Shown: one piece after another, positions 1 to 22,682 of the stretch | How positions within the stretch are numbered: the stretch's first letter is position 1 | Layout of the letters: every line of letters starts with the position of its first letter | Assembly (NCBI RefSeq): GCF_947623445.1 | Contig: NC_135241.1 | Coordinates: 2,110,501-2,174,500 of the forward strand | Source: Clavelina lepadiformis | Lineage: Eukaryota; Chordata; Ascidiacea; Aplousobranchia; Clavelinidae | Reading direction: 5' to 3' | Length of the DNA: 64,000 nt | Position numbers and translations under genes: made by a program | Notes under the pieces: generated by a model | What the model saw: only the letters and a program-made list of their open reading frames with translations | What the model was told of the DNA's origin: nothing | Databases searched by the model: none

Positions 1-38
1 TTCCGAATATCCATATGAAATTGCAAAAGTAATATCGG

Positions 39-120: not shown

Positions 121-199
121 TGTGCTTAATGCATAGATGAGAAATAGATAAAATCGCACTTTTCCGAATATCCATATGAAATTGCAAAAGTACTATCGG

Positions 200-292
200 C
201 GTTGTCGGCAGGATTCGAACCTACGCGGGCATAGCCTAACAGATTTCAAGTCTGTCGCCTTAACGTTGCCTTAACCACTCGGCCACGACAAC
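200..292 (-). pseudogene. tRNA-Ser-like copy (anticodon UGA) with an 11-nt D-arm insertion
   Basis: This is a second copy of the neighbouring tRNA-Ser with the same acceptor stem, B box and discriminator G, but 93 nt long. The anticodon has become TGA. An extra 11 nt (AACGTTAAGGC) follows GGTTAAGGC and looks like a short tandem duplication of the D-arm end. Canonical nuclear tRNA introns lie one nucleotide 3' of the anticodon, so this is not an ordinary intron. It also widens the A box/D-arm, so the molecule probably does not fold or mature normally. The anticodon stem and the variable arm remain pairable. Confidence 0.7.
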
Positions 293-2448: not shown

Positions 2449-4703
2449 TCATATTTTCGTTTTAAGGCCGGTGGTTTCTTTTGATGTAATTGATTCTGTG
2501 AGCTTTCTTCCGAACTTCCAGCACAGAGCTTGCAACATTTCTTCACGAAAGGCCTTGTCCCGTAAGCTGTAGATTATGACGTTGAAGAGACTGTAAAAGT
2601 AGAATTCACCAAGACGTAAAAACTGTTGTAAATGTTATTATCAATTTACAAGAACTTATTTACAGTATTGAAATATTCTTAGAAGTCACGCACAAGTTAT
2701 AAACTTATAACTATTCGAGCTAAAGCAACAGAATCTCACCTGTTGCTTAAAGTGGTGTAGAAACTTACAAGGTAGGGTTGAGATAAACTGTCACAACTTA
2801 AATAACGGCTATATAGCAGTGAAGCAAAAAGAATTGATGGAACTGAAACCAAAAATAAGCGTTTTTAGGCCTATACATGTGTTTTGGTGAAGATATAGCA
2901 GTATAGGCTAATTAATACAGGTATATACACTGTGAGTTTTAAGATATGATTTTACATTTACCTGTTAAAAGGACCGAAAGCTGTTTCAAGTTGCAGTTTA
3001 CTTTTTACCAAATGGCTTTATAGCTATTTTTCATTACATGATATGCTAAACAAATTCTTACGCAAGGTGATGGTAAAACAAGTTTGCATTATCGCGACTG
3101 TCACCAACGCATTTTTATTTTGTTGCAAACAGCAACTTTCTGGATTTGTACTTTTACGTTTTTGTGCCAGTGTTCCTGCAAAGTTTCGACGTCGGGAAAT
3201 CATAATACCGGTTCCAATAATGAAAACACTCTACGATAAAATATGTAAACAGATTGTTAAATTAAAAGTAATCGATTCTGCAGCTTTTGCTGTTACATTC
3301 CACTTGTTCTACTTTTACTTCTGCTTTTTGTCGGAAGTTATAAGTTAGTTCAGATTTTTTTTCATTCTTGCTTGGTTAATATATATCGAAGACTTACCGT
3401 TAGAATGTATGGTATAACATAAAAGACTGTAAAAATTGCAAATGCAACATGATAATTTTGCCCCTGAGTTATTACTGTAATAGATGGGTAAAAAACGAAT
3501 ACCGTTGTGGAATAGGAATAGGTGACTTCTTCAACTAAACAAACTGAAAAACAATGTAAGCTACTGGTAATGTAGTTAACTAATATTGTGTTATTATCGG
3601 TTCGCAACGCTGCAGTTGTAGATGATATATATATTGTATCTACATTTAGGCAGGTTCCTATAGACGAAAATGGAACGTTGCAACTTTGCAAGGGCAGTCA
3701 ATCGCAACAATTATGAAAAAAGTGTTGCCACTCATCATGTCTAGATTTTATATAATACAACTAAACATACTCAGAGATACGGTCATCGCTGATAAAATCC
3801 ACACCATTGCAACTCCTGCGTAAACTGATTTTTTGTTTTGCCATCTGTAGTTAAACGGTTTTGCTACGGCGTAAAATCGCTCTATTGACAAATAAAGAAG
3901 GTGATATATAGAAGAAGTGATCCCAAGAAGAAATGATATTCCTGCAGCATATGCTTGCGGCGATTCCCGCAAAGCCAATTGCTCCTGGTCGAGCCCAAGC
4001 GGTGTCATATTCATTGACCAGCTGAAATTGTAAGTAACTACAACCAACAGCTGAATACCTGCATCACAATTCAGTTTCACAGTTTGTGCTCGGAGTGTTT
4101 TTTTTTCGAAAAAATGATATTTTTAGAAAATATAATTAAATTGTAAACATAAAACATCGGAATAATTTTGTGTTAACTACAAAATTTTACGTTCATACTT
4201 GTCAGAATATCAGCAAACGCCAGTGAGCTTCTACAAATGTCCATTTTACTTGCTTTGCCACGTTTACATCTTCGAAAGCCCAAAAATATGGTTAAACCGT
4301 TTCCAACCAAGATTGCCAATCCCAAACACACCGCTAGAAATAAAAAGAACGCTCCACGAAATATTCCACATTCCTGGCAATCGAGCAAAGTTTTGTTGAA
4401 GCATTCGATGTAGATTTTCGACGTATTGGCTCGGCAAATTCCAGGAAAAGCACAAAGCACGGAGTGATTGTCTGGAATTACGATGACTATTTGAATAAAA
4501 AAACGGAAAACATGTTGTATTTGACCGAAACCGTTGGACAAAGTTAAGCATTAATTACACTCTGTGTGTATAATCGTTGCTTCAAATTCTAGCTAGTTAT
4601 TCTGTTTGTCTGGCTTACAGTTTTTTTGGTCCATGCCATAGTTTGTTGGTAATCTGTCCGGTATCAGAGCAGCAGGATGATACATTGGCATATACTCTTC
4701 CAT
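2449..4703 (-). CDS. Rhodopsin-like GPCR, tandem array gene 1 (401 aa, 7 exons)
   Basis: Seven coding exons (4703-4619, 4471-4199, 4058-3771, 3543-3398, 3230-3062, 2842-2740, 2590-2449) with GT-AG borders give 1206 nt, one open frame. Intron phases are 1,1,1,0,1,2. The N-terminus is Cys-rich (FNKTLLDCQECG). Class A marks that are kept: TM1 GNG, TM2 SLAFAD, TM3 ERF for DRY, TM4 Trp, TM5 Pro (FYVIPY) and TM6 Pro. Odd: TM3 starts SPQAYAAG with Ala at position 3.25, so the usual disulfide Cys is missing. TM6 reads FTITLLP, without Trp 6.48, and TM7 reads NVIIY instead of NPxxY. Exon 1 (MEEYMPMYHPA...) has no obvious signal peptide and an upstream exon cannot be excluded. Ligand unknown. Closest kin are the four minus-strand paralogs that follow. 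Confidence 0.9.
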
Positions 4704-5181
4704 TTAGCTAATAAAAAACAACCAATATTTAATATCTTATAAGCACTCATACAATAAATGTTTGGCACTAAATATACATGTTTAAATGCGGAGGTTTCTG
4801 AAGCGCTTATTTTCAGTTGATATTTCAATTTACACCTACGCATTTTGTGTCATGCACTATATCAAAATTACTGTATATTTAACTGAAATTTTCATAAAAT
4901 GTGCACACAAAGCATTTAACTACATTTCTCAATCAACAAAATTGCAGAAATGCTTCGGAAATATGGGGACTTTCGCTTTCTTGCCTCTCCATAGATTGCC
5001 TTGCTTAAGTAATAAAACTAAAAGCTCCTGTTTATTTACTTTGCACCTCTCGACCTACTGTATACTATAGATATACTAGTATGCCCTTAACAGTAATTTC
5101 AAAGCCTTTAAGTAGAAAGAAATCGATTTACATCTTTCTTGCTGTCTCATTCATCAAATGTGCTATGATTAACAATTATTA
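4704..5181. other. Intergenic, presumed 5' flank of GPCR gene 1
   Basis: No gene is visible. This stretch must hold the promoter of the gene at 2449-4703 if that model starts correctly. No convincing TATA or other core element stands out. Confidence 0.4.
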
Positions 5182-6606
5182 CACTGGACAACAATTTACA
5201 ACTTATTTTTTATTCCTCGCTCATTTCAAGTTTACCTAGACTAATTTTGCAATGCTGAATCCAAATCTGGTCTTAGATTTTTTCTAACACGTCACGTTTT
5301 TGAGATATGATATATGCTCACGACAACCCATAACTGTGATTTTGGCTAATTTTGGCTGAGCGGAACAAAACATTACATGTAATCAACCCAGTAATTTCTA
5401 TTGAAAATAACAGCATTATCATACTGCACAATTTAACACAACCCAGGATAATTAAATCAGACAAAAATAACATTATATTCCCTCAAAAGTGCTTTATACA
5501 CTTGCTCTTTCGAGTATGTTCAGTGTCAGTTTCACGCTGAAGAAACCAGCAGTAGTCCCCCATCATGTTTGGGTTAAATCAACCTCTACACCGCGATTCT
5601 ATCACAGAGATATCTTGGTGAAATCTTTCCCCATGCTCGTCGCTCACATCACCCAGGTTTAGCGGGGAAAATTCCAAGTGTGAATGAAGAAAATGCAGTT
5701 TAACCGACATTCTGCAGCCCATTTCGCGGTATGATTCCAGCAAATTGTCCACTAGTTCCGAGTAATTTTCTGCCCTGTACTTCCCAAGAAAATTTTGTAC
5801 AATCTGTACAAATGCATTCCAGGCTTTTAATTCAATTGAATTAAGCTTGGATGGAAATACTGGGTCACGGATCAAATCACGTATTTGGGGGCCAACAAAT
5901 ATTCCAGCTCTCAGTTTAGCATCACTTGGTATTGCACCAAATTTTTCTTTTATATGCAGGAATCCATCTCCATTGAAATCCATTGCCTTCACAAATTGTT
6001 TGATCAGGCCCAGTTTAATGTGAAGTGGTGGCAAGTACACTTTGCTCGGATCAATTAGGGGTTGGCACTTAACATTATATCTTCCAACAATGTAGTCCGT
6101 TCTCATTGGCCATTCAGTTGTGTCATAGTGGTTTGCATCGTCTCGACTGTCCCACAAACAGAGAAAGCACAATTGCTTGGTGTAACCCAACTGCAATCCG
6201 AGCAAAAGTGACACAACTTTAAGGTCTCCACATATGTTCCCCCCCTATACCCCTACCCCCCCCCCCCCCCCCCTCTATAGTCATGGCCAAGAACATTCAA
6301 GAATGCATTAATTGTGAAAAGATAGAACATTGCATTTACAAAATAATGTCAATATTAATCTTACATAACATGCGTTGTGACATAATATGACCAACAATTC
6401 GCTGGGAAAGAAAATTGCACAATACCTTGTACTGTAGAACCTTATAATATAGTGCCAATCAATGCAAAATCCAAATTTTGTGAATTTTCATATCTTGAAA
6501 ACCTGACGTGATAGACCAATTCTGATTTCAGATTTGGAATCAGCGTCCCAAAGTTAGTCTAGGCAGTTTATTTTCATTTGAGGAATAATTTTGCTGTTGT
6601 CCAGTG
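5182..6606 (-). mobile_element. Unclassified DNA transposon, copy 1 (internally deleted)
   Basis: The element runs between inverted termini CACTGGACAACA (5182) and TGTTGTCCAGTG (to 6606), flanked by TTA on both sides (5179-5181 and 6607-6609), a likely 3-bp target duplication. It is the same element as 30463-32112 but in opposite orientation. It has lost about 250 bp that in the other copy encode the first 80 or so residues; the loss abuts a long C tract (about 6241-6272). It separates GPCR genes 1 and 2. Confidence 0.85.
5579..6214 (-). pseudogene. Transposase-like protein, C-terminal part of copy 1
   Basis: The 211 codons match residues about 86-296 of the protein at 30825-31811, with roughly eight differences, so the two insertions are young or young copies of the same source. 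Shared blocks include LCFLCLWDSRDDANHYD, the LPPLHIKLGLIKQFVKA segment and DEHGERFHQDI. A CGA to TGA change ends the frame before the final conserved block (PNMMGDYCWFLQR in the other copy). The N-terminal region is deleted. It cannot encode a whole protein. Confidence 0.85.
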
Positions 6607-8548
6607 TTATCTTCATGAATATCATTTGTCTGTAATTTCCTCTCGCTTTGTCGAAATCTATTTCATTTCTTCTAATAATTCTGCCTTGTAAAGATAAGCG
6701 GCTTTTTAATAATAAGTCGCAAATTATTAATTACGTAGCCTATATGAACACTTACGTAAAAGCGAAATTTTCCTTATGACGCTCAGACATACAGTAAGTA
6801 AACCGGTAAAACTGTTTAAAACTGAGGTTCCGAAAATGCTGTTATTTAATGATAATATTTGGTCATTTTACCCAATAAATTGGCTTTTGGAAAAAAGTTA
6901 ATGCATTAATAACAGAAAAACAATGCCCCATGGTATCACGATTTTCATTTCATAATGCTGTCAGTGGAGGAACCTTGTAAAAATTTGCAAACGTGTTTTG
7001 GATGTTAGTTTGCTGATGTTATCAATGAGTTTATTCAGTTTTATACTGCTGCTGTCCTTTTGAACTCTATTGGTGATCTAATGTAGTTGATCTATTTTAC
7101 AGTCGAACAAACAGTGAAACTTGTCGCTTATTAAAAAGAGTGATATTCAATTTCACTACCGGCATGAAACTAGTTATCATTTTCTGCCTTTGCTACTTTC
7201 TCGGTTACTTATTCGCAGTTCAAGTAATTTACTTAAAATATCACTTGATCAAGTATAGATGTATATCTATATAGATGTCTATAGTATAGATGTATATCTT
7301 GTAAAAACCATAGTTTAAAATAAAATCACAAAATTTAAGATAAATTCGAATTAATTGGAATCAGACCAAACAATGTTTATAAACTCAAATTTATCGATTT
7401 AATTTCAAAATGTTTGTACTACCTTTCATATGCGGTATTTAATATAACTTCAATAAACAAGCTTGGTAATTAACCGTAATGGCTATATTGTCGTTTGACT
7501 GTTGCCGTTATTTTGGCCAATTAAGTTCGAGTTCGAGCTCTGCCAGCATTGTCGTTGCCTTTTAACTTTCAATATTTTCATAAACGGCCGCTGCTGACTG
7601 ATAAAATGAACATCAACTGACTTGAAAATTAACCAGAAACGTTGCACTTTTTATATTAATATAATTTTTATACCTTGCGTTTGTGGTACTTTTCAAGGGT
7701 TGTAACGTGAAATAAGTCGATACTCTTTATATTATTTTATATTACTGCAGATACGTTAATCAAGCTACTACATTCCCTAGCAAACAATTCGTAACCAGCA
7801 ATGTTAATATTTCTGATTGTTCTAAGTTTCTCTTACATGCCTTCTTGTCTTTGCTTTTTAATCTATACAAATGACTTGCTGCTGTAAGTTTGTAGAAAGT
7901 TCTTTGTTATTTCAATCAATTGTCTTTGTTAACATTGTCTTTGATAAGAATGTGAATTTACGGTCAATAAAAATAAAAAAAACTTTAGCGACTTAAGACA
8001 TACTTTTAGTTATTTTATTCACTTTGTATAAGAACTTTGATCATAATCTCGGTTGTTTAATCCAAAATCATTAAATTAGAAAACGTATTACTAAATTCAC
8101 TCTACTTAGCATAATGACAAAACTTAGGTTTTTTTGGTGGATGAATTTTTGTTTTTTTACAGTAATGAAAAAAACCTTGTGGTATTTGTTAAATTATGGG
8201 GTTAATAACAAAATTAAAAAAATTTGACTGGAAATTGGCAAAAATCAGTTTTAACTTTATATGCTCGAATTTAGTGCTGTAGATAGCATACGCATTGTGT
8301 CATCGTAATTATTTGCTGGAAATAGTTTGTTATTTGTGGTTTAGGTTAGTAACGTGATTGAAAATTTAACAAGAAATTTGATATGGACCAACAGCATAGT
8401 TTCCAGTAGTCATACCGGCTAACAGTATCCAAACTTATAAAACTGTTGTATGATAATAAAACTCAGATCTATGCAATGAGCATGTATTTACATTTTAAGA
8501 GAAACAATAGTTTATATGGTGCTTAATAATTATTTTCTTTTGGGTCAT
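6607..8548. other. Intergenic, no gene seen
   Basis: About 1.9 kb of AT-rich DNA between the transposon and the 3' end of GPCR gene 2. A short TA-rich simple repeat (AGATGTATATCTATATAG-like) lies near 7255-7300. No splice-linked frames were found. Confidence 0.5.
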
Positions 8549-10925
8549 TCAGACTGATGGCTTTCTCGTGCGTTTCGGGCAAAATGTTTGAAATAAATCA
8601 TCTCGAAATTCCTTGTCTTGTAGGTTGTAGATTATCACGTTGATAAAACTGTTGAAACGATGAAGCCCAAGTTAATCAGTCAAAGCTCTTATAATACCAG
8701 ATAAAAGTTTGATTGTAGGTTATGCTGTACGGAGTTCTATCTATTTCATCAGAAGCCCACCTGTTGCTTAAAGAGATGAAAAAGCTCACAAAGTAGGGTT
8801 GAGAGATGTTGACACAATCGACAAGACGGCTATAAATCAGGGCAGTTAAAAATACTATCGGAACTGGAATTGAAAATGCAAATTTTGTATAAGTTCTGGG
8901 TGAAAGTTTAAAATTTCAGTTTAATGAAATCGTCGAAAATACTCATACGACATACAATTGGAACACTTAACAATTTACTGAAAGTCGTTCGATTTTTTTT
9001 TACTTTAACCCTTAAATCACATAATAATGTAAAAAATTTCTTACGCAAGGTGGTAGTAAAGAAAATGTGCATGATAGCAATTGTCACCAATGCCTTGGTG
9101 TTTTGCTGCAAAGACACCCTCTCAGAATCTTTATTTTGCAAATTATGTTGCGTTTCTCTTGTAACCTTTCGGCGTTGGCGAATCATAATAGCAGTTCCAA
9201 TTACTAAAGCACTCTGCAAAGGTATTGTAGTAAACTACTTAATATTGGGGATAGTTCTTGCTCTTATATTAAATATCTTCATTTAAACTTATATATTAGC
9301 GGTTTTTTGTCTATTTCTTGCTGTCAAATGCTATTTTGCTTCCAGAAACCAACTCTTTCATATCCACTCCACCTTGCAATTGTTCTACTCGCGAAACTTA
9401 CCGTCAAAGTGTAAGGAACAATGTATAAGAGGGCAAGAGCAGCAAGAAGATCAACATGACTTTGCTCTTCATTTATGTCCTTTGGCGTTGGGAAAAAGAT
9501 GAAGAGCGATGATGAGTAAACGAAAGTCCAATTTTGCGCAAAGTATGCTAAATTATAAACAACTTGTTAACAGAAAACGTTCAAAGATTTTTGTATTTTT
9601 GCATCTGAATGTACGTTTTAGAAAAATAACGGCATTTATTGCTCACTTATACTTTAGCAACAACAAAGTGGAAAGCAATATAGTTACATAAATCTATTGT
9701 CTCTAGTTGTATAACTGCGTTCTATACGAATTGTTAAAAACGTTACAGGTAAACACTTGTGTATTCTTACGTACTTATTGCGATTGCAATTGCTGAAAAA
9801 ATCCATGCCACTGTAACTCCAATGTAAACTGACTTTTTACTTTGCCATTTGTAGTTAAATGGCTTTGCCACTGCGTAAAATCTTTCTATTGCCATATAAG
9901 TCAAATGATACATTGACGAAGTGATTCCGAACAAAAAAGCAAATCCTGCCGCATATGCTTGTGGCGATCCCCGCAGAGCCAATCTACTCCTGTCAAATTC
10001 AAGCGGTGTCATGTTCATCGACCAACTGAAGTTGTAAGTTATTACTACTAGCGGCTGTAGACCTGTGACATGGAACAATAACAATTTTCTGTTTACGTTA
10101 CATGATAAAATTATAAACTTTACAAAACTTAACTATATGTGAAGACAAAGAAAGAAATAAGTTGAATTAACTATAATTGCTATAGCTAACGAACCAACTA
10201 ACTAACTAACTGTGACATGGAAATTATATACTTTACAGTAGGCTACCTACTAAACTATATGTGAAACCAAACGAAAATCAAGGTTATTTACTAATTACTC
10301 ATAACTAACCATAACCAACCAACCAAACAACTAACTGATGACGTAATTTGTTTCTTACTTGCCAAAGCATCCGCCATCGCCAGCGAGCTGCGACAAATAT
10401 CCATTTTAGTCTCTTTGTTACGTCTACATCGTCGAATGCCCACAAAAATGGCTAAACCATTCCCCATTAAGATTGCCAGCCCTAAACACACGTTTAAAAA
10501 TAAAAATATCCCACTTCGAGCCAATCCACATTCTTGACAATCAAGCAAAGTTTTGTTGAAGCATTTTCGGTTGATGGTCACCGTGTCGCTAGCGCAAAAC
10601 CCAGGAAAGATGCACAGCGAGGAATGATTTCCTAAATAAAATCTTTCAGTGACTAAAAGTCCGAATACGGAGCAATATTATACAGAAACCTGAGCGGCGT
10701 TGAACAGAATATACTGGAATTCTGTAATTGCAACATTCAACAAATACGCAGCCTTGACTGCGAAGGCCAGCACAAACCGTTTGTTGCTCGTACCCAGTCC
10801 GATGTCACAGCTGGCCAATATGCTGACATATCACTTCCATTTGGCTTTGTAAAATGATTGATCTCATATATCGTTTGATTGGCTGTTGGGTTGATGTTTC
10901 CGATTACAGGTTTCCAGTTGCACAT
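8549..10925 (-). CDS. Rhodopsin-like GPCR, tandem array gene 2 (about 408 aa, 7 exons)
   Basis: Exons 10925-10778, 10631-10359, 10062-9775, 9547-9402, 9213-9045, 8863-8761 and 8648-8549 give 1227 nt in one frame. Exons 2-6 have the same lengths and phases as gene 1. The first in-frame ATG is at 10925 (MCNWKPVIGN...). The donor at 10777 (G|GTTTGT) was chosen because it gives phase 1 and the same N-G-N-H-S junction as gene 3; a donor about 30 nt further on is the alternative. The N-terminus has NQT and NGS glycosylation sequons and the CFNKTLLDCQECG block. Kept: TM1 GNG, SLAMAD, ERF, FTTTLLP. Lost: Cys 3.25, Trp 6.48 and Pro 7.50 (NVIIY). The C-tail is short (ends KRTRKPSV). Ligand unknown. Confidence 0.87.
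10195..10345. repeat. (AACT/AACC)n tracts in intron 2 of GPCR gene 2
   Basis: Two runs of AACTAACT/AACCAACC type lie at about 10195-10213 and 10308-10335. Between them the intron repeats part of itself (TGACATGGAA... at about 10065 and 10213). The tract resembles the AACT-type tails seen at 19782-19832 and 53326-53340. Confidence 0.6.
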
Positions 10926-12513
10926 TTCCAAAAGCGATTTATTTTGCAATAAGCATTCGATATTCCGCAAAGCAACTTTATGGTTACGTCACTGGTAAAT
11001 TTTGTTTATTGTCTCTGCTTATAGATTTTGCACTTTGATTCATTAAAAATTGAAATATACCACTACCTATACAAGTTCTATAATTCAAGTTAAAACGTTT
11101 GACATTTTTAAATGGTTATACACTTCAAATACTTATATATACCTTTATACTTCAAATGGATTCAGTTAAAGGTCTCATATATCTGACTTGAGAAATGAAA
11201 AAATTGCCCTTTTCACTCAATTTTTCTCTTTGTATCACAGAAAGCTAATACGAAATGTTGTCTTATTTCATCCATTTTCTGTGAACTATTTGCGCAGTGT
11301 TACCACCTGCCTACCTCTTTTATCATTTAAGCTAGCTTTGGTCATAGTTTTATAATGGTTTTTTTTAATTTCCTGTTGCTTTGTTGGGAAAGGTGATTTT
11401 AAACCTGACGACAAAAACTGTATTTGAATTTAGTTTTAGCGATCACTTTAAGTAAACTAATGGTAAATTGTTATAAGAAAAAATTTCAGAGCCGAGGTAT
11501 GTTGTTAAATCTGAGATCTTTTGTGCGCTTCGGCTATGAATGGATTCAAATAATTAATATTTACATTTTTAGCTTTAAGTGTAGCCTATATAGACTTTTA
11601 TGTGAATTTGCAAATGGATTAGCATTTTGAGGCGTCGCCACTGTTTACTACGAAACACTAATACTTCGCTTCAATAAGTCAGTCCTTGGAATACTTTGAA
11701 ATAAGTATTTTGAAAGCTGGTCAACTTTATAAAATATAGCTGGCTTTGTCTGATGCAACTTTTGAACAGTTTATTTTTTAAGCGGAATTTTTGTTAACAA
11801 AATTCTTTCTTTGGAGGATAATGCTGAAGTATCGAACAATATTATCTCCCAATATCTTGGTGCTTCCAGAAAATAAACGGCATTTTTTACAGCTTCTGCT
11901 TTTTATTGCATATATCATTAAAAGACATACAACAAATTTGAAAATTTTACAAAAAATAATGCAACACAAATTACCATACAGTTACTTCAAAGAAAGCTTC
12001 TGTAGTAAATCTTTAACTTTTGAAAATGTACATTAATACTTAGCGCAAGTTTAAAATCTTAAGATTTGACACAAAAACCAATTAAGTATTCGTATTCCGA
12101 TGTAACGATGGTTCACTTTATTTTACAACACGTAAAAAGAAACAGGAAAGAAACCGTTTACAGGTAAATCGACAATACAAGTTAATTCGCGATATTCAGA
12201 TCTGATGATGGTTGATCTCCTTTGTTTCACACATCGTAAGATGTAGTGTGCGAGGCTTTCGTTAAAAATAAAAGTTAGTCTTATCAAGACATTTTGCACA
12301 GAAATTAATGTTATAGTGTACTGCACTTTTTTTGTCAAATTAAAGTTTATGCAAAACGTTTACTCTGATTTTTTTCTCTAAAGCTTTATACCATGCTGTC
12401 GATCCTAACTATATATTAGTGCCGATACATTTAAAGTGCAAATCAACATGTAGAAACGGTAAATATACATGAAGCACTGTGTAAATAGATGTAACTTGGT
12501 ATCAGCTAAAATC
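10926..12513. other. Intergenic between GPCR genes 2 and 3
   Basis: AT-rich, with no splice-linked frames. It should contain the upstream region of gene 2 and the 3' UTR of gene 3. Confidence 0.45.
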
Positions 12514-14935
12514 TTATATTTTTGTTTGGAGTTCAGTGGTTTCATTTGAAGTGCCCCATTTCAAGAGTTTTCTCGCGAATTGCGGTTTCACTGTATGCAG
12601 CATTTCGTCTCGAAATTCCTTGTCACGTATGTTGTATATTACGACATTAGCAAGGCTGAGAAAAAAATCGATCGAGTATAAATAAATTTTATTTTTCGAA
12701 AGTCGTTTTGAAATCTTAAAAACTCTAAAAGTTCAATAAACAAAATTATTCCTTTTCAATTGTTCAAGTATATTTATAGTCAATCACTTCGTAAACACTT
12801 TAAGAACTCGCCTGTTGCTTAAGGTAAAGTAGAAGCTTATAAGGTAAGGTTGGCTGAGAGTGGCACAATCCAATTGACTGGTGTACAGCAGCGAGGATAT
12901 AATCATTGTCGGCACTGCATGAAAAGAAATTTGAATACTATCACTATCATTACAGAGAATGTTGATGTGCATTGCTGACTAAAACGTCGATGCACTTTAT
13001 ATATAGTAAAGTTTATTTATGTGGGATTTTTGCCACATGTAACATTTATAGCATGTTTCAGAAAGTCTTACGCGCTGTAATGCTGAAAGCAATTTGCATT
13101 ATAGCGATTGTGATTAATGCGTCGGTGTTTCGTTGCAAAGACAACCTCTTAGTGGTTTTATTCTTTGATTTTTCTTCCATTCCCCCGACAATTTTTCGAT
13201 GTCGGCAAATCATAATTCCAGTTCCAATAATCAAAATTGTCTATGATCCATAAATAAAACAAATTCAATGTAAGATGAAGCCAAGTAATCCTTACAACTG
13301 TGAAGCTTTGTTTGGTAGGGTAGGCCAAGTTTCACGGCGACACTTCTTTTTTTTAGAAAGAAGTGTGTCGAAAATTGTTCAATTGTTCAAGTGTGTTGTA
13401 TTAATAAGCCTATATGTCATTGCTCTTACCGTTAAGAGGTATGGTACCGCATACAACACTGCATAAAACAAATGAATTGCTGATGACTGGTTAAGTTCTG
13501 TTGGCGTTGGGTAATACAGAAACACCATTGGAGAGTAAGAAAATGTAAGTTCTTGAATGAAACATGCTAAAGAACAGCTACAATTATGAATTCAGTTTAT
13601 GACCAACCTGTGATGGTTCTGAAGCTAGCCAACCTTCAAGAAAGTCATATAAGTCTTTTATAAAGTTGGTAAAGATAACTTGTTTGGCACTATTCTTACG
13701 CATGAACTTACTTAATATAATGGCGATTGCTGGCAAAATCCACGCCATTACAACTCCAACATAAACTGACTTGTTGCTTTGCCATCTGTAACCATAGGGT
13801 TTTGCGATTGCGTAAATTCGTTCCATCGCCATGTAAGCCAGTTGATACATGGAGGTAGTGATGGCAAACAAAAATAACAGTCCTGCCGTATATGCAAGTG
13901 GCGATCCCCGCAGAGTTCCTTGCTCATTCTCGAGCTCATTCAATGTCATTGACATCGACCAACTGAAGTTGTAAGTCACTATCACTAACAACTGTATACC
14001 TGCGACATATTTAAATTAACATTTTTAGTTTCTAAAAAGCTTTATTATAAAACATATATTTGACGAAAGAGGTTTTGTAAACAATTCATAATTTCACACG
14101 AAATACTTACTCACTTGTCAAAACATCCGCCATTGCAAGTGAAGTTCTACAAATGTCCATTTTACTTGCTTTGCCACGTTTACAACGTCGAATACCCACA
14201 AGCACTGTTAAACCGTTTCCAATGAGGATTGCCAATCCCAAACATACCGCTAAAAATAAGAACACAACACCACGAGTTTCCCCACACACTTGGCAATCCA
14301 GGAAGGTTTTGTTGAAACATTCGTCATGGATTTTTACGTTGTTGCTTTCGCAAAATCCGGGGAAGCAACAACGCATGGAATGATTGCCTGAAATTAAAGG
14401 AACTGTTTATCGAATGCTTGTGGTTTAGCCGCTTATGCACAGCATTAAAGTGATTTTCAACCATCTTTTGCGTGAACACACCATCTGCTGTTCTGTTTAA
14501 CTAAGTGACTTTGTTAACGCATAATTTTATTGTTTAACCAGCTATTGGTTTAGTGGCAGTGTTAGTTGTTACCAGCAGTTATTACGTGGATTATTTTGAG
14601 CATGTTTTTGGCCTTTCAGGCTTTGTAGCTTTTCCCGTTCATGCTGATAACAACTGACTTGGTTCTTTCGTCCTTAAAGCGCTTTTGACGAAAAATAAAA
14701 TAATAGATTGATTGATTAATAGCCCGAGCATTTAATGCAACATTAAATGAAGTAAGTTAAGCCTTTATTTATCACAGTATTATTGCAAGGAAAGCATCAT
14801 ACCATTCTGATTTCGCATCTTGTCAAGCGTCACAACAGGTGGAGAAGTTGACTTTGTAATGCTTTCATAAAACATTTCGGTTTGACTGAAATTAAGCGTA
14901 AGTAGACACTTTGCTGAATCATTGACACAAGACAT
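12514..14935 (-). CDS. Rhodopsin-like GPCR, tandem array gene 3 (about 414 aa, 7 exons)
   Basis: Exons 14935-14803, 14387-14115, 13999-13712, 13566-13430, 13240-13072, 12914-12812 and 12655-12514 add to 1245 nt, one frame, phases as in gene 1. Exon 1 opens at the first in-frame ATG (MSCVNDSAKC...) and ends G|GTATGA. Exon 6 ends AACAG|GCGAGT, so intron 6 uses a GC donor where the paralogs use GT. Kept: GNG in TM1, SLAMAD, ERI, TM6 FSITALP. Lost: Cys 3.25, Trp 6.48 (Ala) and Pro 7.50 (NVVIY). The last exon has the same 142-nt length as in gene 1 and the C-tails align (ETTELQTKI against ETTGLKTKI), pointing to genes 1 and 3 as close relatives. Confidence 0.88.
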
Positions 14936-16299
14936 CAGTTTTGACTTGTAAGAGTCGCTAATTGTATCCACTAGGCGGCGCAATTGTAAATCCAAATCAC
15001 TCCTTCACTTTTGATCGACTAAAATCAAAAATTCCTTGTATTCAACATAAAATATATTTGTATTTGTTGTTACTGTAGCTACGGAAACGCTTATAAAATT
15101 ACAGGTTGCTCTTGCTGGTTTGTTTCGATGTTATTTGGTGACCTCGGAGTAATCATTACAGCTCTTATCAGTCTCCTTAATTGCGACTCAGCTCATACAG
15201 AATATAATATTAAACGCAGCACGAAGTAGCGATTCTTTATGGGCGCTTTGTTTGATTTATCATCCGCCTTGTTGAAGTATTATTCAATTTTTTTTCGCCA
15301 TCACTTTGGTTTTACCTGTCTATGATTTATCTGTTGGTAATTCTAAATTGTAAATCAATACGGAGAAATCTGCAAAACGTCTTCAATTTCGTTTCCGATA
15401 GCTTTTAGCACACAAATATTTATCTATGTCAAAACCATACAATTAAACACTGCGTGATTTCCTAACATTAAGATTGTAGATTTAATTGAGCAAAAACCTG
15501 ATCTGATATTAATAATTCTTTTTCACTGTGATTTTGCAGACGGTCTAATTTTACTTTCCTTCATATCGATCAGAGCCTGCCACTGACAAATAGTTCAATC
15601 GATAATTAATAAGAGGAAATCTTCTTAATGACATTTCTAGTTTTGAACAAAGAAGGAAGCAAAAACTTAGGGAGAAAGATAGAGCCGTGCATATGCTTAA
15701 CATCACCCTCCATTTTCTTTATCAGATAGAGTGATGGTTAAGGTGGTTTCTCTACATGGTTCTTCGCTATGTCGTTGTCCTTTCGTAGACTCTTATTGTA
15801 TATCTTATTAGATATGTTTTTCCAATACCTTTGTCCAATCTCAATACGTTTCTTTGTTTCATGCGCAATTACACATAGTCGGTGTGTTGTCTATTGATTT
15901 AAACGTCCAAGTTGCTGCACGAGTACCGCCTGTTCATTCATTATAAATGATTTTACGTTTGATAGTTTTCTTTGTCCGTTTATCCTAACACAGGCTAGTG
16001 ATTTTGCAACCAACAGGGTCCCGTTCAACACATGCCATTTCGGGTTAGGACTTTGTATTACAAAAATTATATTGACAGAAATAAGATCAAATCTACAAGT
16101 CAATGACGTTTAAATCGTCTATAACGCCGCAATAAATTTTTTCAATAAACTTTTTTCGTGCACATCAGGTTTTGTCCATTTTTGTCGAGAGTATTTGCAG
16201 TGACGGTATAAATTGTTCTGGAATTGTTTGACATATCGTTCACAAAATGCTTTCATGAAAATTTATTTGCCAGGAATTAATTTCTTGCACAAAGAAATA
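14936..16299. other. Intergenic between GPCR genes 3 and 4
   Basis: No gene or transposon was recognised. Open frames here do not resemble any exon of the neighbouring receptors. Confidence 0.45.
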
Positions 16300-18085
16300 T
16301 TACACTCTGCTTTTTATTTCTTTCATCTTGTTAGATTTAGCAAGATTCGTGAGCTTTGATGTTGCACTCTTCACTAGATGCACTTGCAGAATTTTCAAAA
16401 TTTCTCCTCTAAATTCTTTGTCTCGTATGTTGTATATTATGACGTTGACCAAACTATAAAACATAAACACTCAGAAGTAACGCATAAAAATTAAACAAAA
16501 AATACCAAATTTTTCATCTAAAAATTGATAATTTAATTACCTGTTGGACAGTGAAATATAAAAACAAACCATGTAAGCTTGGGTAGATTCCGAATAAAAT
16601 ATAACACTGCTGTACAAGAATGAATCAATGAGAAAGGTGGGCACTAGAAATAGAAATATAATGGCAACGACAGTATTAACTGTAACCTTTTTTGTATGGT
16701 CAAAATACAGAAGTTTTATGATATGTAAACTATGATGCAAAAATTACTGTGCACGATCTTTTACTAACTATACTTACTTAAACTCAAAATGAAACCGGTC
16801 AACATTACGGTGACTGTGGCCAAAGCATTCGCATTCTGCTGGTTTGAGTCCAAATTTCCTCCGTTTGTTTTGCGAAGTTTGTGTTTCTTCAGTTTTTGAT
16901 ATCGCCGAACAACCAACGCAGTGACAATAATAAGACAACTCTGACAATGATAAGAATTATTAATTTGAGATTGAGCAGATTTCTCATCAAACTGAGCTTA
17001 ATACACGATTTTCGAAGCGAGAATACGTAACATATGATAACTTACGTTCAACAAGAAGGGAATGACGTAAAAGAATACGAAAACTATCCCTCCTTCTGGA
17101 TGACTATCGTTAACAGGGGTCTCACACGTGCTTGGATAAAACAGAAATACCGCCGTGGAGTAACTAAATGTTACTTGCTCTGGTAACTGAACTGCGTATA
17201 AAAGATTTTTATCAATTTTTTGTTACTTTAGGCCTACTGACGCATTATATGCGGTTTGACAATACCTACATAACATTACAGCACTTGCTGACGTCACCCA
17301 TACTATGCCGAGTCCCACATAAACCGACTTTTTGCTTTGGTGTCGGTAACTGAAGGGTCTTGCTAGTGCGTATAAACGCTCAATTGCCATAAACGTCAGG
17401 TGGTACTGCGAGCTGATGAACCCGAGTACGTAAGATGTTCCAGCGGCAAATGCCTGCCACGATCCCCGCAAAACACGCTGCTGTCGTTCAAGCTCCTTGG
17501 GTGTCAGCATCATGGACCAACTGAAGTTGTAAGTAACCACCACCAGAAATTGAAGACCTGCAAGAGGATTTCTTATTTAAACCAACCCCAATTCGAAAGC
17601 AAGCATTTTATCTTAACCTTGTATTATTATTTACCAATCAAAAGATCAGCTATCGCCAGTGAGCTTCTGCAGATGTCCATTTTGCTTGCCTTATTGCGTC
17701 TACATCGTCGAATACCCACAAGCATGGTTAAACAGTTTCCAGCTAGAACTGCCAGTCCAACACTAACAACCAGAAATAAGAAGACCGCGCCACGAGCCAC
17801 TCCACATTCCTGGCAATCGAGAAATTTGGTGTTGGCGCACTTTGTGTAGATCTCGTCTCGTGAGCCAACGCAGATTCCAGGCATGAGGGGTAAGTTGCCG
17901 TCATACTCTGCAGTTCTTCTTGTTGTTGTTGCTCTTGCACTAGTTATATCATCCTGCGTTTGGGTGTTCTCTTTTTGCGAAAAATTAGCCTCAACAAATA
18001 AATATTTAGTTTCAAGTCCATTGAAAAAGAGCTGTAGATATTTCGGGTAATAACTTGCTTCAATCCCGCTTGGTACGGTTTGCAT
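16300..18085 (-). CDS. Rhodopsin-like GPCR, tandem array gene 4 (about 434 aa, 6 exons)
   Basis: Exons 18085-17635, 17557-17270, 17191-17046, 16940-16778, 16643-16541 and 16453-16300 add to 1305 nt in one frame. The first exon equals exons 1 and 2 of genes 1-3 fused. It reads straight through DGNLPLMPGIC, where genes 2 and 3 have an intron inside the matching N-G-N. The start is the first in-frame ATG after a stop (MQTVPSGIEA...). This is the most diverged member: TM1 GNC rather than GNG, ERL in TM3, TM6 FILSLMP, and TM7 start IFYSESTQAY where the others have DC...QPY. Cys 3.25, Trp 6.48 and Pro 7.50 are absent as in its paralogs. The C-tail is longer and Lys-rich (KEIKSRV). Confidence 0.87.
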
Positions 18086-18792
18086 TTTTTGCAATAATTT
18101 TCACAATTTCGTACAGCATGTGACGCTGGACGATAACTGATGACTCTCTTTGCGGTTGTGTCATGAAAAAATATCTTCCTTTTGTCACTGAGCGGTTTAG
18201 GGAACCATGAAATGATTTTGATCGAAATCATTTTTATTTGAGGAAATATTTCCACCTGTCTTTCGTAATCAACTAACGGCGTTACCGTCCATGAGATAAT
18301 ATCGGTAATAATATGCTTAACTCATATTTTTTATCGATTTTTTTCATTGTGATGTATTTATGTATAATTAATCAATATTTTCAGTGTCATATTTCATTAA
18401 TTTTTTTAAATCGTGTTTAAGAAGTTTCTTCAGATTTTAATTTCAATATATTTGCTGAATATTTAACCTTTACAATCAGAGTTATTACTTCACTTATTTT
18501 ATTTATGATAAAACCTATGTAAATATTTGAAATATTACAATAACACACTTATAATAGGCCGCCTATTAGAGAGTATTATACTTTATTATTACTATTGGCT
18601 TAAATATTAAACCGATGGTTTTTCTTTTTTCAAGTACTGTAACTTTATGTCTGACCATATATCTGATAAATTAGGTATTTTTACTGTAAGTATGAATTAA
18701 TGGTACCTTTTAATAACGTTGCCTGTTTCAAAACAACGTGTTCAATTTTTGCAAACATCGACGTAGAAATTATATCCGATTAAATACAACTA
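18086..18792. other. Intergenic upstream of GPCR gene 4
   Basis: Strongly AT-rich. One open frame here overlaps the gene 4 first exon out of frame and is a shadow. Confidence 0.4.
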
Positions 18793-19631
18793 CAGTGAGA
18801 CCTCGTTAATCCGGACCACTTCGTTTCGTCAAAAAATGTCGGTTTAGCGGGGTATCCGGATTATCGGAAAGTAAAAAATCAATCAATCTTGCAAATGCAG
18901 TACCGTGTTAAAAATGCAGTATGCACCTTACTCCAATTCTAAGTACCGAGTTTCTGGCTGGACAGCAACTAAAATAAAATTATATTTTTTGTATGATCCG
19001 ACCCAGTGTCGAACCCCAGAACCACCGTATTAAAGACGAATGCTCTAAGCCAGAAGTGACGAACATGCGGCCGCAAATCGGTTTGACAACCGCTCTTGCA
19101 TGGCGAAGCATTCCGGCGGGACCAGCAGTCTTGAACTTTCTTTGACCTGTTTCAAATCTTTGCGCAATGCGATATCAAAAGCTGATAGCACGATTGAGTT
19201 GCAGCAGTATGTCTTCAATAGACTGCCGCTCTCAACCGATGTACTGTACGTATTTTTTTGCGACCGCGGAAGCGTTGTTTGTTACTGTTGATGAACAACG
19301 CAACGTTATTATGAACAACGAACAACGTTGATGAACAACGCAGACCGCAACGTTATTATGCGTAGATAATCGGCTATTGTTTCGTCAACTAACTACATAC
19401 TGTATTAGGACAATCGTGAATCATTTTCGCTTAACTGTTAATAATCCGGTTTATCGGATTTTATTGCTATTGATTTAGCACATTTGTTCCAAAACTTTTG
19501 TGTCGGAGTCGGACAGCGGGGTTTCCGGATTAAAGGGGTAAAATGCATAGGAAGAAATCCGTTCCCGGCAGTTTTGTGTCGGATAGCGGGGATTCCGGTT
19601 CATCGGGGTCCGGATTAACGAGGTCTCACTG
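18793..19631. mobile_element. pogo/Tigger-type (Tc1/mariner) DNA transposon, non-autonomous
   Basis: Near-perfect inverted termini begin CAGTGAGACCTCGTTAATCC at 18793 and end with its complement at 19631, with TA on both sides (18791-18792 and 19632-19633). The ends and the TA duplication are those of pogo/Tigger elements. Further partial copies of the terminal sequence (ATCCGGATTATCGG-like) lie inside both ends. The middle holds a 63-codon frame (19100-19291) with no domain I recognise and a local duplication (AACGTTATTATG repeated near 19300-19360). Confidence 0.85.
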
Positions 19632-19639
19632 TATATACT

Positions 19640-19832
19640 ATTCACCGTAGACCACGAATTGGAAATGGTGGATAAACTGCAAACTAGGAGATTGTTTTGC
19701 AACGACTTCATCCGCATGTTCAAAGACAGAGAGGCTTGGAGGACCATGATCGCCGATGTCTGTACCAGATCTGGCACTTAACTAACTATTAACCACCCAA
19801 CCAACCAACCGACCAACCAACTAACTATATAA
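19640..19832 (+). mobile_element. LINE 3' end fragment with AACT/AACC tail
   Basis: An in-frame segment at 19656-19781 (42 codons with stop) reads ELEMVDKLQTRRLF... and ends DREAWRTMIADVCTRSGT. This resembles the extreme C-terminus of non-LTR reverse transcriptase proteins. It is followed directly by a simple-sequence tail of AACT/AACC units to about 19832, as LINE insertions often have. The fragment abuts the pogo-type element just upstream. A related piece lies on the minus strand near 53326-53430. Confidence 0.55.
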
Positions 19833-19849
19833 CTCTAATGCCATGTCGA

Positions 19850-20470
19850 GCAACCTCCGCGTTTTTCCCAAACACTCGTTTTCAGACAAATCACGTCATA
19901 CCACTTTTTACATTGTATTTGTTTTCTCATCGTTTTAAATAACAGCTTCATTACTTCTATTATGTTTTGTATTTACGCTTACCATTGATCTTGTGCTATT
20001 GTATAAACACTGATGTTGTCTGAACTGTGTTAACCGAATTTTAAAGTAAAATAAGAAAACCATTTTTCACAGTACACCTGAAGAAGCAAGCTTATGCTTG
20101 CGAAAGCTCATGTCGAAAAATATAAAGTTAACCTTAAGAGTACCAAACTATATCCTGTTTCTTATTTTACTGTATAAACATTTTTATGTTGTCGTCCGAT
20201 GTTTTTGCGATTTCGTGGACTTCTGGCCTCCTGGCAAGAACTTGCTCAAGTTGGTTTGAACTTGAACTTTAACTTGCTCAAGATTTTCATTAGCGAATTA
20301 CAATTGTCGAAAAAGCATGTTTCTATTTTGTTCGTGATTGATCTTGCAAGAAGCGTTACGTCTTTTTAATAATGAAATTTTCAAATAATGAAACTTCCAT
20401 CAAAACAATTAACTGTAACTTTTAATAAAAATGAACAAGAAAAACTGGTATATGACGTAACAACAATAAA
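19850..20470. repeat. Segment with a diverged direct copy at about 23570-24010
   Basis: Several blocks appear in the same order in both places, for example TTTTCATTAGCGAATTA against TCTCATTAGCAATTTA and the AATGAAATTTTCAAATAATG block against AATGAGATTTTCAGGTTATG. The small MITE at 20045-20171 is absent from the second copy. It looks like an old duplication of the 3' flank of GPCR gene 5. Confidence 0.5.
20045..20171. mobile_element. Small MITE-like element
   Basis: Inverted ends AGTAAAATAAGAAA (20045-20058) and TTTCTTATTTTACT (20158-20171) enclose about 100 bp, with an inner hairpin GCAAGCTTATGCTTGC near 20096-20111. The family and target duplication are not clear. Confidence 0.55.
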
Positions 20471-20622
20471 AATTGTGAGAAACGTATTTGTCATTTTATT
20501 TTCAGCCGTGCATGTTGTTAAACGAAAACAATGATGCTCTTGTGTAGAGAAATATCATGACAACGACTTACAACAAATAAGTCATATAACAACCATTGAA
20601 ATATTATATATTTTTTGTTCCA

Positions 20623-22682
20623 TTAGTTTTTTTTGGATAACATCGAGTCGAATTGTTTCTTGAAGAAACTTTTTACCGATTTCAATTTTAAAAGTTGGAA
20701 AATTTCCTTTCTAAACTCCTTGTCACGAACGTTGTATATCACGACGTTGAATAAACTGCGCATAAATTTACTGGGATTATTTCAATTTAACTGTGAGTTA
20801 ATCAGTTATTTAGTTGAATTTATAATAACGTTAATTTGCTATACAAGCTGTCAATTGAAGTGAAACTAACCTATTACTGAAAGAGATGTAAGAGCTCATC
20901 ATAAAGGCAGTTGAAAAAGCGTCACAGTCAACTAATCCAGAATAAAGCAAGGTGCCCACAATTAAAGTAGGAACTGGAAAACATGAAGCGGTCCTGATTA
21001 AAAATAAAACTTATATAAATTATAAATGTATAGAAGGAAACTCTCAAACACAAATATTTATCTTGTTGAGTCCAACTTTAATCCTTTTATAAATTCCTCG
21101 AGAGTCACAAAGAACGAAAGGCAGATGCACAATGTCATCCTTACACGCAATTTTCTCGGATACAATTTATAATTATGGAGTATAGTTATGCTACTGTATT
21201 TAAGAAGAGCATTTATATCGAATGATTTGATCGTGTTTGGTTCAATGTTTGTATTTGAGTTCACTTGTGCTCTACATTTACATGCTGACTTTCAACATTA
21301 GCCTGCAATACACAAAAAAACGTCTTACGAAAGGAAATTGTGAATCCAAATTGCATTATGGCCACCGTGATAAATGTTGCTGGGTTCTGCTGCAAAGAGT
21401 TTTTGTTCGAGTTGATTTTATTCAATTTTCTCATTTTAATGTGTTTAGCCTTCCTGAATCGACAGATCATAATTGCAGTTGCTATAATTAAAGTTGTCTG
21501 CAAAACAATACACCCATAAAGTCAAAATCGGTCTAAACGCTAATTGTTGTTCATCATTTACACCAAAGCCGTATACACTGACCGTTAAAAAATAAGGTAG
21601 AAGGTAGATTGCTCCAAACACAGAAAATACTGCTTTATTAGTTGGATTCAAAGTAGCTACAGATGGAATGGGAAAAAACAAAAATGCTGGAACCGAATAA
21701 GCACAGGTAAACCATTGCGTAACTGGAATATATAAAACAAATGGATTAAATGCTTTTAGGTACATTATCGTATATAGCAGTTAAAAAATAATAACATGTC
21801 TTCGTTTTCATTCGTATACCGAAAATTGTAAATATTGCCACTAAGCTCCAAATTATTCCGATGCAAGAGTAAATGATGGCCTTTTTGCTTTGCCACTTGT
21901 ACTTAAAGGGCAGTGCTATTGCATAAAATCTCTCCAGGGCCATAAATGTCAAATGAAACATGGATGAAATAAGCCCGAAGACGTTTAGAAATCCTGCGGC
22001 AATAGCAAATGTTGATTCTCGTAAAGCTATTTGCTTCTTTTCGAGCTCGAGGGGGGTCAGGTTCATTGACCAACTGACGTTGTAAGTAACTACAACCAGC
22101 AGCTGCATACCTGAATCATTTTTATTTACTGGAATTGAAGACACTTTGCTTAGGCAGGCATAAACAATATTGACAAAACAGTTTCATATCAGTTAAAAAA
22201 TTTGTAATTGCATATTATTTGTCTCTATATACAGTACAATACTTACTTGTCAAAGCATCAGCCGTTGCCAGCGAAGTTCTACAAATGTCCATTTTACTGT
22301 CTTTACCACGTCTGCAACGTCGAATACCTACAAACATGGTTAAACCATTTCCGATTAAGATTGCCAATCCCAAGCATACAACCACAAACAAGAAAATTGC
22401 TCCACGAACGAAACCACATTCTTGGCAATCGAATAGAGTTTTGTTAAAGCATTTTGTGTAAATATCTTCTGCGCTGCCGACGCAAATTCCAGGAAGGCCA
22501 CAGAGAGTTCCTGGATCATAGTTTGGACCAACTGTGGTTAAAGTAGGTTGGGAAATGTTGCTGATGGGAAATCCTGAAGTTACCCAAGCATTTACCGTCT
22601 GATTCAACGAGAACGATTTCAAACTAATTGCACTAACTGCATTTGCCTCAGCTTCGTCTGATTCTAAATTAAGCTTTAGCAT
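20623..22682 (-). CDS. Rhodopsin-like GPCR, tandem array gene 5 (about 423 aa, 6 exons)
   Basis: Exons 22682-22247, 22110-21820, 21722-21583, 21497-21329, 20973-20871 and 20755-20623 add to 1272 nt in one frame with GT-AG introns. As in gene 4, the first two exons of genes 1-3 are fused. The start is the first in-frame ATG (MLKLNLESDEAEANAV...). The extracellular N-terminus has NQT and NIS sequons, then CGLPGIC and CFNKTLFDCQECG. Kept: GNG, SLATAD, ERF, TM4 Trp, TM5 Pro and TM6 Pro (FTISFLP). Lost: Cys 3.25, Trp 6.48 (Phe) and Pro 7.50 (NVVIY). Exon 3 carries one extra codon and exon 4 is two codons shorter than in gene 1. The C-tail is short and basic. Ligand unknown. Confidence 0.87.
20968..21116 (-). 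repeat. Gene 5 intron 5/exon 6 junction, source of an inverted copy
   Basis: This stretch of the gene (end of intron 5, its TTTTCCAG acceptor and the first bases of exon 6) is repeated in inverted orientation at 24022-24168 with only a few differences and a short indel. Confidence 0.85.

What the first reader, a model, noticed from the sequence alone, without database searches (positions are those of the whole stretch)
2449..22682. Five tandem GPCRs that all lack three class A hallmarks
All five minus-strand receptors keep TM1 Asn, TM2 Asp, the E/DRY arginine, TM4 Trp and the TM5 and TM6 prolines. All lack the TM3 cysteine 3.25 (Ala), the TM6 toggle Trp 6.48 (Leu, Leu, Ala, Leu, Phe) and the TM7 proline 7.50 (NVIIY or NVVIY). 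The losses are shared, so they predate the tandem expansion and are not decay; the frames stay open. With the Cys-rich N-terminus (PGxC, then DCQxCG) this suggests a lineage-specific receptor group that closes its extracellular side and switches differently from ordinary rhodopsin-like receptors. Likely chemosensory or peptide sensing, but that is a guess.
Basis: partly seen in the sequence, partly recalled or inferred. Interest (0 to 1): 0.78.

Follow-up and report, generated by a model that had tools for sequence, protein, structure and literature searches.

The report
Sea-squirt receptor family with altered switches
Five neighbouring sea-squirt genes belong to a large, apparently undescribed family of rhodopsin-like receptors that lack three otherwise typical building blocks, and they are candidates for the still unknown chemical sensors of these animals.

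Summary
Five minus-strand genes (window 2449-22682) encode class A receptors of 376-434 aa (Pfam 7tm_1). All five lack Cys3.25, Trp6.48 and Pro7.50, and no plausible splice change restores them.

They are a small part of one family. Second-exon matches mark at least 61 loci on seven chromosomes, partly in arrays, pseudogenes included (hand count). Of 29 gene types read, Cys3.25 is absent in 29 of 29, Trp6.48 in 24 of 24 readable, Pro7.50 in 24 of 24 readable (mostly NVxxY). Six ordinary class A receptors of the same genome have all three. The losses therefore predate the family's spread; dN/dS of 0.19-0.34 in the window argues against decay.

A first N-terminal Cys and an ECL3 Cys are both present in 17 and both absent in 5 of 22 gene types, suggesting a disulfide in place of the TM3-ECL2 one; few independent events support this. 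The Asp2.50/Ser3.39/Thr-Ser6.47/Asn7.45/Asn7.49 network is kept, a candidate replacement for the Trp switch.

Ligand, expression and occurrence in other tunicates are untested; chemosensing is a guess. I file it as a new variant of class A.

The parts
2449..4703 (-). Receptor gene A, 401 aa; exons 4703-4619, 4471-4199, 4058-3771, 3543-3398, 3230-3062, 2842-2740, 2590-2449. Ala3.25 codon 3954-3952, Leu6.48 3065-3063, Val7.50 2580-2578; N-terminal Cys35 4454-4452, ECL3 Cys337 2795-2793
   Evidence: Model; residues; Pfam 7tm_1 E 1.3e-15. First exon (4703-4619) inferred
8549..10829 (-). Receptor gene B, 376 aa; exons 10829-10778, 10631-10359, 10062-9775, 9547-9402, 9213-9045, 8863-8761, 8648-8549. 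Ala3.25 9958-9956, Leu6.48 9048-9046, Val7.50 8638-8636; Cys24 10614-10612, ECL3 Cys326 8816-8814
   Evidence: Model; residues; Pfam 7tm_1 E 4.6e-20. First exon (10829-10778) inferred, weakest of the models
12514..14935 (-). Receptor gene C, 414 aa; exons 14935-14803, 14387-14115, 13999-13712, 13566-13430, 13240-13072, 12914-12812 (GC donor), 12655-12514. Ala3.25 13895-13893, Ala6.48 13075-13073, Val7.50 12645-12643; Cys51 14370-14368, ECL3 Cys350 12867-12865
   Evidence: Model; residues; Pfam 7tm_1 E 1.7e-16. First exon inferred
16300..18085 (-). Receptor gene D, 434 aa; exons 18085-17635, 17557-17270, 17191-17046, 16940-16778, 16643-16541, 16453-16300. Ala3.25 17453-17451, Leu6.48 16781-16779, Val7.50 16443-16441; lacks both the first N-terminal Cys (Pro66) and the ECL3 Cys (Tyr)
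   Evidence: Model; residues; Pfam 7tm_1 E 7.5e-18
20623..22682 (-). Receptor gene E, 423 aa; exons 22682-22247, 22110-21820, 21722-21583, 21497-21329, 20973-20871, 20755-20623. Ala3.25 22006-22004, Phe6.48 21332-21330, Val7.50 20745-20743; Cys61 22502-22500, ECL3 Cys362 20926-20924
   Evidence: Model; residues; Pfam 7tm_1 E 4.8e-13
1939..2022 (-). Short relic resembling part of the first core exon (LSDCQERGVVRS...), downstream of gene A; the same relic lies near the A-like copies at chr2 2.00-2.03 Mb
   Evidence: Exon profile, E 8.6e-3, chr2 2112439-2112522: weak

Best explanation
The five genes are functional members of a large rhodopsin-like (class A) receptor family of this sea squirt whose common ancestor had already lost Cys3.25, Trp6.48 and Pro7.50 (and, in the 11 gene types checked, Tyr5.58).

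SHOWN by sequence: class A signature; a largely intact G-protein-facing side (R3.50, ICL2 Pro, Phe8.50, Tyr7.53); purifying selection; genome-wide spread.

INFERRED: they signal through G proteins. The ligand side is braced not by the TM3-ECL2 disulfide but by a small N-terminal knot of four invariant Cys next to TM1 and, in most members, by a disulfide from a fifth N-terminal Cys to ECL3 (my odds 0.55). Without Trp6.48, agonist binding is passed on by TM6 pivoting at Pro6.50/Phe6.44, coupled to the retained polar network Thr/Ser6.47-Asn7.45-Asn7.49-Asp2.50-Ser3.39 (my odds 0.4). Val, Ile or Phe at 7.50 should leave TM7 straighter. The ligands are unknown; tandem growth fits varied external or peptide ligands. 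The confidence below is for the core claim, functional class A receptors with ancestral losses, not for each inferred step.
For: 7tm_1 in 5 of 5. Hallmark tables. Same-genome controls 6 of 6 canonical. dN/dS 0.19-0.34, 0.29 for gene A against its copy A2 at chr2 2.00 Mb. Family spread. No Cys between D2.50 and R3.50 in the five. Four invariant N-terminal Cys in 11 of 11 gene types. Cys pair concordant in 22 of 22, whereas a TM1 Cys does not follow it. ICL1 and ICL2 are the best conserved segments, 83% and 72%. Network 6.47-7.45-7.49-2.50: passages of PMC3610275; sodium site 2x50, 3x39, 7x45, 7x49: passages of PMC6954041. Partial precedents: MRGPRX1, MC4R.
Against: No expression, ligand or signalling data. 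The disulfide rests on few events: two paired changes on the best trees; a single loss is not rejected (p-AU 0.093; 0.071). A Cys near 7.38 has the exact inverse pattern in the 11 gene types, so the pair may partly mark descent. For the MC4R precedent, C40-C279 was only postulated in the source and mutagenesis showed no significant effect. ICL3 (26%) varies more than any outer loop and ECL1 (66%) is conserved, so the loops are weak evidence for ligand diversity. AlphaFold of the N-terminal exon was uninformative. Divergent members have Gln, Leu or Asn at 3.49 and one has Met at 3.50. Most dS values in the window are near or above 1.
Confidence: 0.7

Rival explanations
1. External chemosensory receptors: the family supplies chemical senses of larva or siphon, in an animal group without the vertebrate chemoreceptor families. 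This is a sub-hypothesis of the best explanation about the ligand.
For: Tandem arrays and at least 61 loci; recent near-identical duplicates and pseudogenes; tunicate OR, V1R and V2R orthologues reported missing and TAARs disputed (PMC7776563, section and passages).
Against: No expression data; tandem expansion also occurs in immune and peptide receptors; outer loops are not uniformly the most variable parts.
Confidence: 0.3
2. Internal receptors for peptides, lipids or immune signals, for instance on blood cells, expanded in this species.
For: Gene D's best solved-structure hit is S1P receptor 2 and others are peptide receptors; the Cys-rich N-terminus would suit a peptide ligand (inference).
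Against: Solved-structure hits spread over amine, opsin, adenosine, peptide and lipid receptors without a winner.
Confidence: 0.3
3. A fast-evolving branch of an already named tunicate or chordate class A subfamily, in which the missing residues are drift without a special mechanism.
For: Single losses are known elsewhere; many Ciona rhodopsin-family receptors stayed unclassified in 2008 (PMC2396169, section 5), so relatives may exist there.
Against: The replaced sites are constrained: 3.25 Ala in 27 of 29 and 7.50 Val in 20 of 24 gene types, which is not what drift gives; Pfam and solved-structure searches name no subfamily.
Confidence: 0.25
4. Atypical receptors that bind ligand but do not couple to G proteins (decoy or scaffold).
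For: Loss of Trp6.48, Pro7.50 and Tyr5.58, all in the common activation path; Glu3.49 replaced in 6 of 27 gene types.
Against: R3.50 in 26 of 27 and Tyr7.53 in 22 of 22; ICL1 and ICL2 are the best conserved segments.
Confidence: 0.1
5. Gene-model artefact or pseudogenes.
For: Some family copies are frameshifted or truncated (F3, A3, A4, H4, B2).
Against: The five window genes have open frames, conserved splice sites and dN/dS well below 1.
Confidence: 0.04

Closest known systems
Class A (rhodopsin-like) GPCRs, Pfam PF00001 7tm_1
   Same: Profile match over its whole length; N1.50, D2.50, R3.50, W4.50, P5.50, F6.44, P6.50, N7.49, Y7.53, helix 8
   Different: No Cys3.25, Trp6.48, Pro7.50 or Tyr5.58; D2.50 to R3.50 is 64 residues in 5 of 5, against about 52 in the beta2-adrenergic receptor (recalled)
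MRGPRX1 (Mas-related receptors)
   Same: Lacks the TM3-ECL2 disulfide and Trp6.48 (Gly) and still signals (PMC10286997, passages)
   Different: Keeps NPxxY, has Leu at 5.50 and a TM4-TM5 disulfide
Melanocortin receptor MC4R
   Same: No TM3-ECL2 disulfide; an N-terminus/TM1-to-ECL3 disulfide (C40-C279) postulated without experimental proof (PMC6685040, passages)
   Different: Very short ECL2, Met5.50, DPxxY; here W4.50-P5.50 spacing is 51-54, Pro5.50, NVxxY
Mcr-like receptors of Ciona, Styela and amphioxus
   Same: Invertebrate chordate class A receptors with an altered CWxP motif (PMC11430673, passages)
   Different: Reported to keep P7.50 and D/NPxxY
Ciona LDLRR-GPCR/LGR-like expansion
   Same: A tunicate lineage-specific expansion in class A (PMC2396169, abstract and sections 5, 6, 13)
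   Different: TM regions like relaxin receptors, 14 of 32 with LDL-A domains; here a short Cys-rich N-terminus without Pfam domain. Sequences could not be compared
Nematode chemoreceptor profiles Srx, Srab, Srsx
   Same: Secondary matches of genes B, D and E
   Different: 7tm_1 scores better in every case; only B to Srx and D to Srab pass the curated cut-off

Membership tests
Class A GPCR (7tm_1) | Profile match above the curated cut-off over the 7TM region | tested here: met
   5 of 5, 49.6-72.6 bits against 30.5, profile 1-260
Class A GPCR (7tm_1) | N1.50, D2.50, R3.50, W4.50, P5.50, P6.50 | tested here: met
   5 of 5 in the window; family, of readable gene types: N 24/24, D 24/24, R 26/27, W 26/26, P5.50 22/22, P6.50 21/21
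Class A GPCR (7tm_1) | Common but not universal marks: Cys3.25, Trp6.48, NPxxY | tested here: not met
   0 of 29, 0 of 24, 0 of 24 readable gene types. They do not define the class: Trp6.48 is in 78% of non-olfactory class A sequences (PMC3610275), and MC4R and MRGPRX1 lack the disulfide
Melanocortin receptors | Met5.50, DPxxY, very short ECL2 | tested here: not met
   Pro5.50 22 of 22; N7.49 22 of 22 with V, I or F at 7.50; W4.50-P5.50 spacing 51-54 in the five
Mas-related receptors (as MRGPRX1) | Gly6.48 with NPxxY kept and no Pro5.50 | tested here: not met
   No Gly6.48 in 23, no Pro7.50 in 22, Pro5.50 in 22 of 22
Nematode Srx/Srab/Srsx chemoreceptors | Best profile match is to these families | tested here: not met
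   7tm_1 outscores them in 5 of 5
Ciona LDLRR/LGR-like receptors | LDL-A or LRR ectodomain and relaxin-receptor-like TM region | tested here: inconclusive
   No LDL-A or LRR match at E up to 1 in the five proteins; Ciona sequences not available for the TM comparison
Vertebrate-type odorant receptors | OR motifs and place in a tree | not tested
   No OR sequences used; orthologues reported absent in tunicates (PMC7776563)
Chemosensory receptors (function) | Expression in sensory cells and response to external chemicals | not testable with these tools
   No expression or assay data here

The most novel reading that the evidence does not exclude
An undescribed tunicate class A receptor family of 60 or more loci that works without three to four canonical switch and bracing residues, braces its outer face by an N-terminal Cys knot plus an N-terminus-ECL3 disulfide, and serves the chemical senses of an animal group that lacks the vertebrate chemoreceptor families.
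Probability: 0.25. Interest if true: 0.78.

Novelty: new variant of a known kind. Interest (0 to 1): 0.5.

Why it matters
What tunicates, close relatives of vertebrates, use as chemoreceptors is unknown: a review reports OR, V1R and V2R orthologues missing and TAARs disputed (PMC7776563, section read). A class A family of at least 61 loci with its own signature (NVxxY, no Trp6.48, no TM3 Cys, PGxC...C...DCxxCG) gives concrete candidates for in situ and imaging tests. For receptor biophysics it is a natural experiment: a lineage that keeps the sodium-site network and most of the G-protein face, yet lacks the toggle Trp, the NPxxY Pro and the canonical disulfide together.

Tried and rejected
Pseudogene or splice artefact: rejected for the window genes, accepted for some copies elsewhere (F3, A3, A4 frameshifted; H4, B2 truncated).

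Known subfamily by solved-structure search: hits spread over amine, peptide, opsin, adenosine and S1P receptors; no winner.

AlphaFold of the N-terminal exon (90 aa, five window sequences): pLDDT 55.7, pTM 0.29, nothing on disulfides.

Independence of the Cys pair: only one or two independent pairs, so no sign test is possible.

The first A against A2 dN/dS (0.80) was out of register in one exon and is replaced.

Related receptors elsewhere in the window: none found by tblastn in 23-64 kb above E 0.33.

Not in print, as far as searched: listings show no such motif combination or Clavelina family; only the first 10-20 rows were seen, and most subscription papers and all preprints are not held. 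PMC8746363 was looked at (passages) and not used.
Full report
SOURCE. The window is contig C2:2,110,501-2,174,500 of genome G000, called chr2 here. The eight contig lengths seen (28.78, 26.53, 25.73, 25.07, 24.62, 20.77, 20.45, 19.51 Mb) agree to about 0.01 Mb with chromosomes 1-8 of Clavelina lepadiformis kaClaLepa1 (PMC10884593, passages). G000 has 209.06 Mb in 95 contigs, the published assembly 210.1 Mb in 102 scaffolds; the species is therefore inferred. Ascidia mentula, also 9 chromosomes and 95 scaffolds, has 197.0 Mb and fits less well.

OBSERVATION. Five minus-strand genes were modelled by hand: A 401 aa, B 376, C 414, D 434, E 423. Intron phases agree; 28 of 28 acceptors are AG, 27 of 28 donors GT, one GC. 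A, B and C need an inferred 5' exon. Pfam gives 7tm_1 over the full profile in 5 of 5 (E 4.8e-13 to 4.6e-20). No Cys lies between D2.50 and R3.50 in the five. In alignments to solved class A receptors the TM6 Leu falls on Trp and the TM7 Val on Pro. Tyr5.58 is missing too in 11 of 11 gene types.

SELECTION. Pairwise dN/dS in the window is 0.19-0.34 in nine of ten pairs, the tenth saturated; dS runs from 0.93 to above 2, so the values are rough. Gene A against its recent copy A2 gives 0.29 (15 synonymous, 15 non-synonymous differences).

EXTENT. I fetched 180 kb before and 29.5 kb after the window. A second array at chr2 1.976-2.048 Mb holds F1, F2, F3 (frameshifted), F4, four copies each of G and H (the fourth H truncated), A2-A4 (A3 and A4 frameshifted in the first core exon) and a 3' piece of a B-like gene. 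Units there are 98.6-100% identical: recent duplication, or partly an assembly effect. Whole-genome protein searches were answered. Loci with a match to the second core exon, counted by hand: 46 at E 1.4e-9 or better and 15 more at 1.8e-7 or better with a divergent query, so at least 61 on contigs 1, 2, 3, 4, 6, 7 and 8. Pseudogenes are included, and the tool calls its counts lower bounds.

HALLMARKS. Twenty-seven gene types were tabulated and two read by eye (L047, L048). Left out: near-identical copies and frameshifted F3; positions not recovered are not counted. 3.25: Ala 27, Ile 1, Ser 1 (29 of 29 not Cys). 6.48: Leu 15, Ile 4, Phe 2, Thr 2, Ala 1 (24 of 24 not Trp). 7.50: Val 20, Ile 2, Phe 2 (24 of 24 not Pro). 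Kept: N1.50 24/24, D2.50 24/24, R3.50 26/27 (Met in L035), Ser3.39 26/27, P5.50 22/22, Thr or Ser 6.47 23/23, P6.50 21/21, N7.45 21/21, N7.49 22/22, Y7.53 22/22. Position 3.49 is Glu in 21 of 27, Gln in 5, Leu in 1; Asn in L047, Gln in L048. Control: 6 of 6 intronless class A receptors of the same genome carry Cys3.25, Trp6.48 and Pro7.50, read by eye; they come from eight fetched loci, two without a clean single frame being left out, and as top Pfam matches they favour canonical sequences.

CYSTEINE PAIR. Four N-terminal Cys (PGxC, C, DC, CG) are invariant in 11 of 11 gene types. A fifth, before PGxC, and an ECL3 Cys are both present in 17 and both absent in 5 of 22 gene types, never mixed. 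A TM1 Cys does not follow. I read this as a disulfide between N-terminus and ECL3. Against: two paired changes on the best trees; one common loss in D, H and F is not rejected (p-AU 0.093; 0.071); a Cys near 7.38 has the exact inverse pattern in the 11 gene types; the structure prediction was uninformative.

HOW IT MAY WORK. Shown: a largely conserved cytoplasmic face and sodium-site residues. Inferred: G-protein coupling; an outer face braced by the N-terminal knot and the ECL3 link; activation by TM6 pivoting at P6.50/F6.44 with the 6.47-7.45-7.49-2.50 network in place of the Trp toggle. Passages of PMC3610275 describe that network, with Cys, Ser or Thr at 6.47, in ordinary class A receptors, and give Trp6.48 in 78% of non-olfactory class A sequences, so this loss alone is not rare. 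MRGPRX1 couples to Gq without Trp6.48 and without the TM3-ECL2 disulfide (PMC10286997, passages). MC4R lacks that disulfide; its N-terminus-ECL3 bond is postulated, without experimental proof in the source (PMC6685040, passages). Over 10 gene types ECL1 is 66% identical, ECL2 37%, ECL3 31%, ICL3 26%.

WHAT IT IS NOT. Not a melanocortin or Mas-related receptor by the marks tested. Not better matched by nematode chemoreceptor profiles. Solved-structure searches favour no subfamily.

VERDICT. A real, apparently undescribed variant family of class A. Ligand and distribution over tunicates are open. Chemosensing is attractive, because the known vertebrate families are reported missing in tunicates (PMC7776563), but it is untested.

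Noticed in passing
window 37-120 and 198-292 (-): Two neighbouring tRNA genes in a tandem repeat (161-bp spacing, 94% identical over 103 nt): tRNA-Ser(cga), and a copy with a short insert that ARAGORN reads as tRNA-Cys(aca).
   Followed up: no
window 5579-6244 (-) and 30795-31811 (+): A 338-aa open frame and a shorter copy, near-identical by eye, between receptor genes A and B and further right, without a Pfam match: probably a dispersed element.
   Followed up: partly
window 26322-26966 (-): Open frame of 214 aa matching glycolipid transfer protein, PF08718, E 3.3e-44.
   Followed up: partly
window 46314-46900 (+): Exons of a WD40-type protein (PF00400 E 1.9e-5, below cut-off), coronin-like by recall.
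   Followed up: no
window 63307-63591 (+): C-type lectin-like fragment, weak Pfam match E 0.0087.
   Followed up: no
chr2 1,990,382-2,047,510 (loci L009-L014): Tandem units of about 15.5-18.8 kb with G, H and A-like receptors, 98.6-100% identical, and a block of 28-bp repeats at 2,018,898-2,020,575: very recent duplication or partly an assembly effect.
   Followed up: partly
ECL1 of window genes A-E: ECL1 is longer than usual (D2.50-R3.50 spacing 64 in 5 of 5) and the best conserved outer loop, with an N-glycosylation sequon (NFS or NVS) in 5 of 5.
   Followed up: partly
TM7 of D, F1, F2, F4 and H: A Cys near 7.38 occurs exactly in the gene types that lack the N-terminal/ECL3 Cys pair (11 of 11); unexplained.
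   Followed up: no
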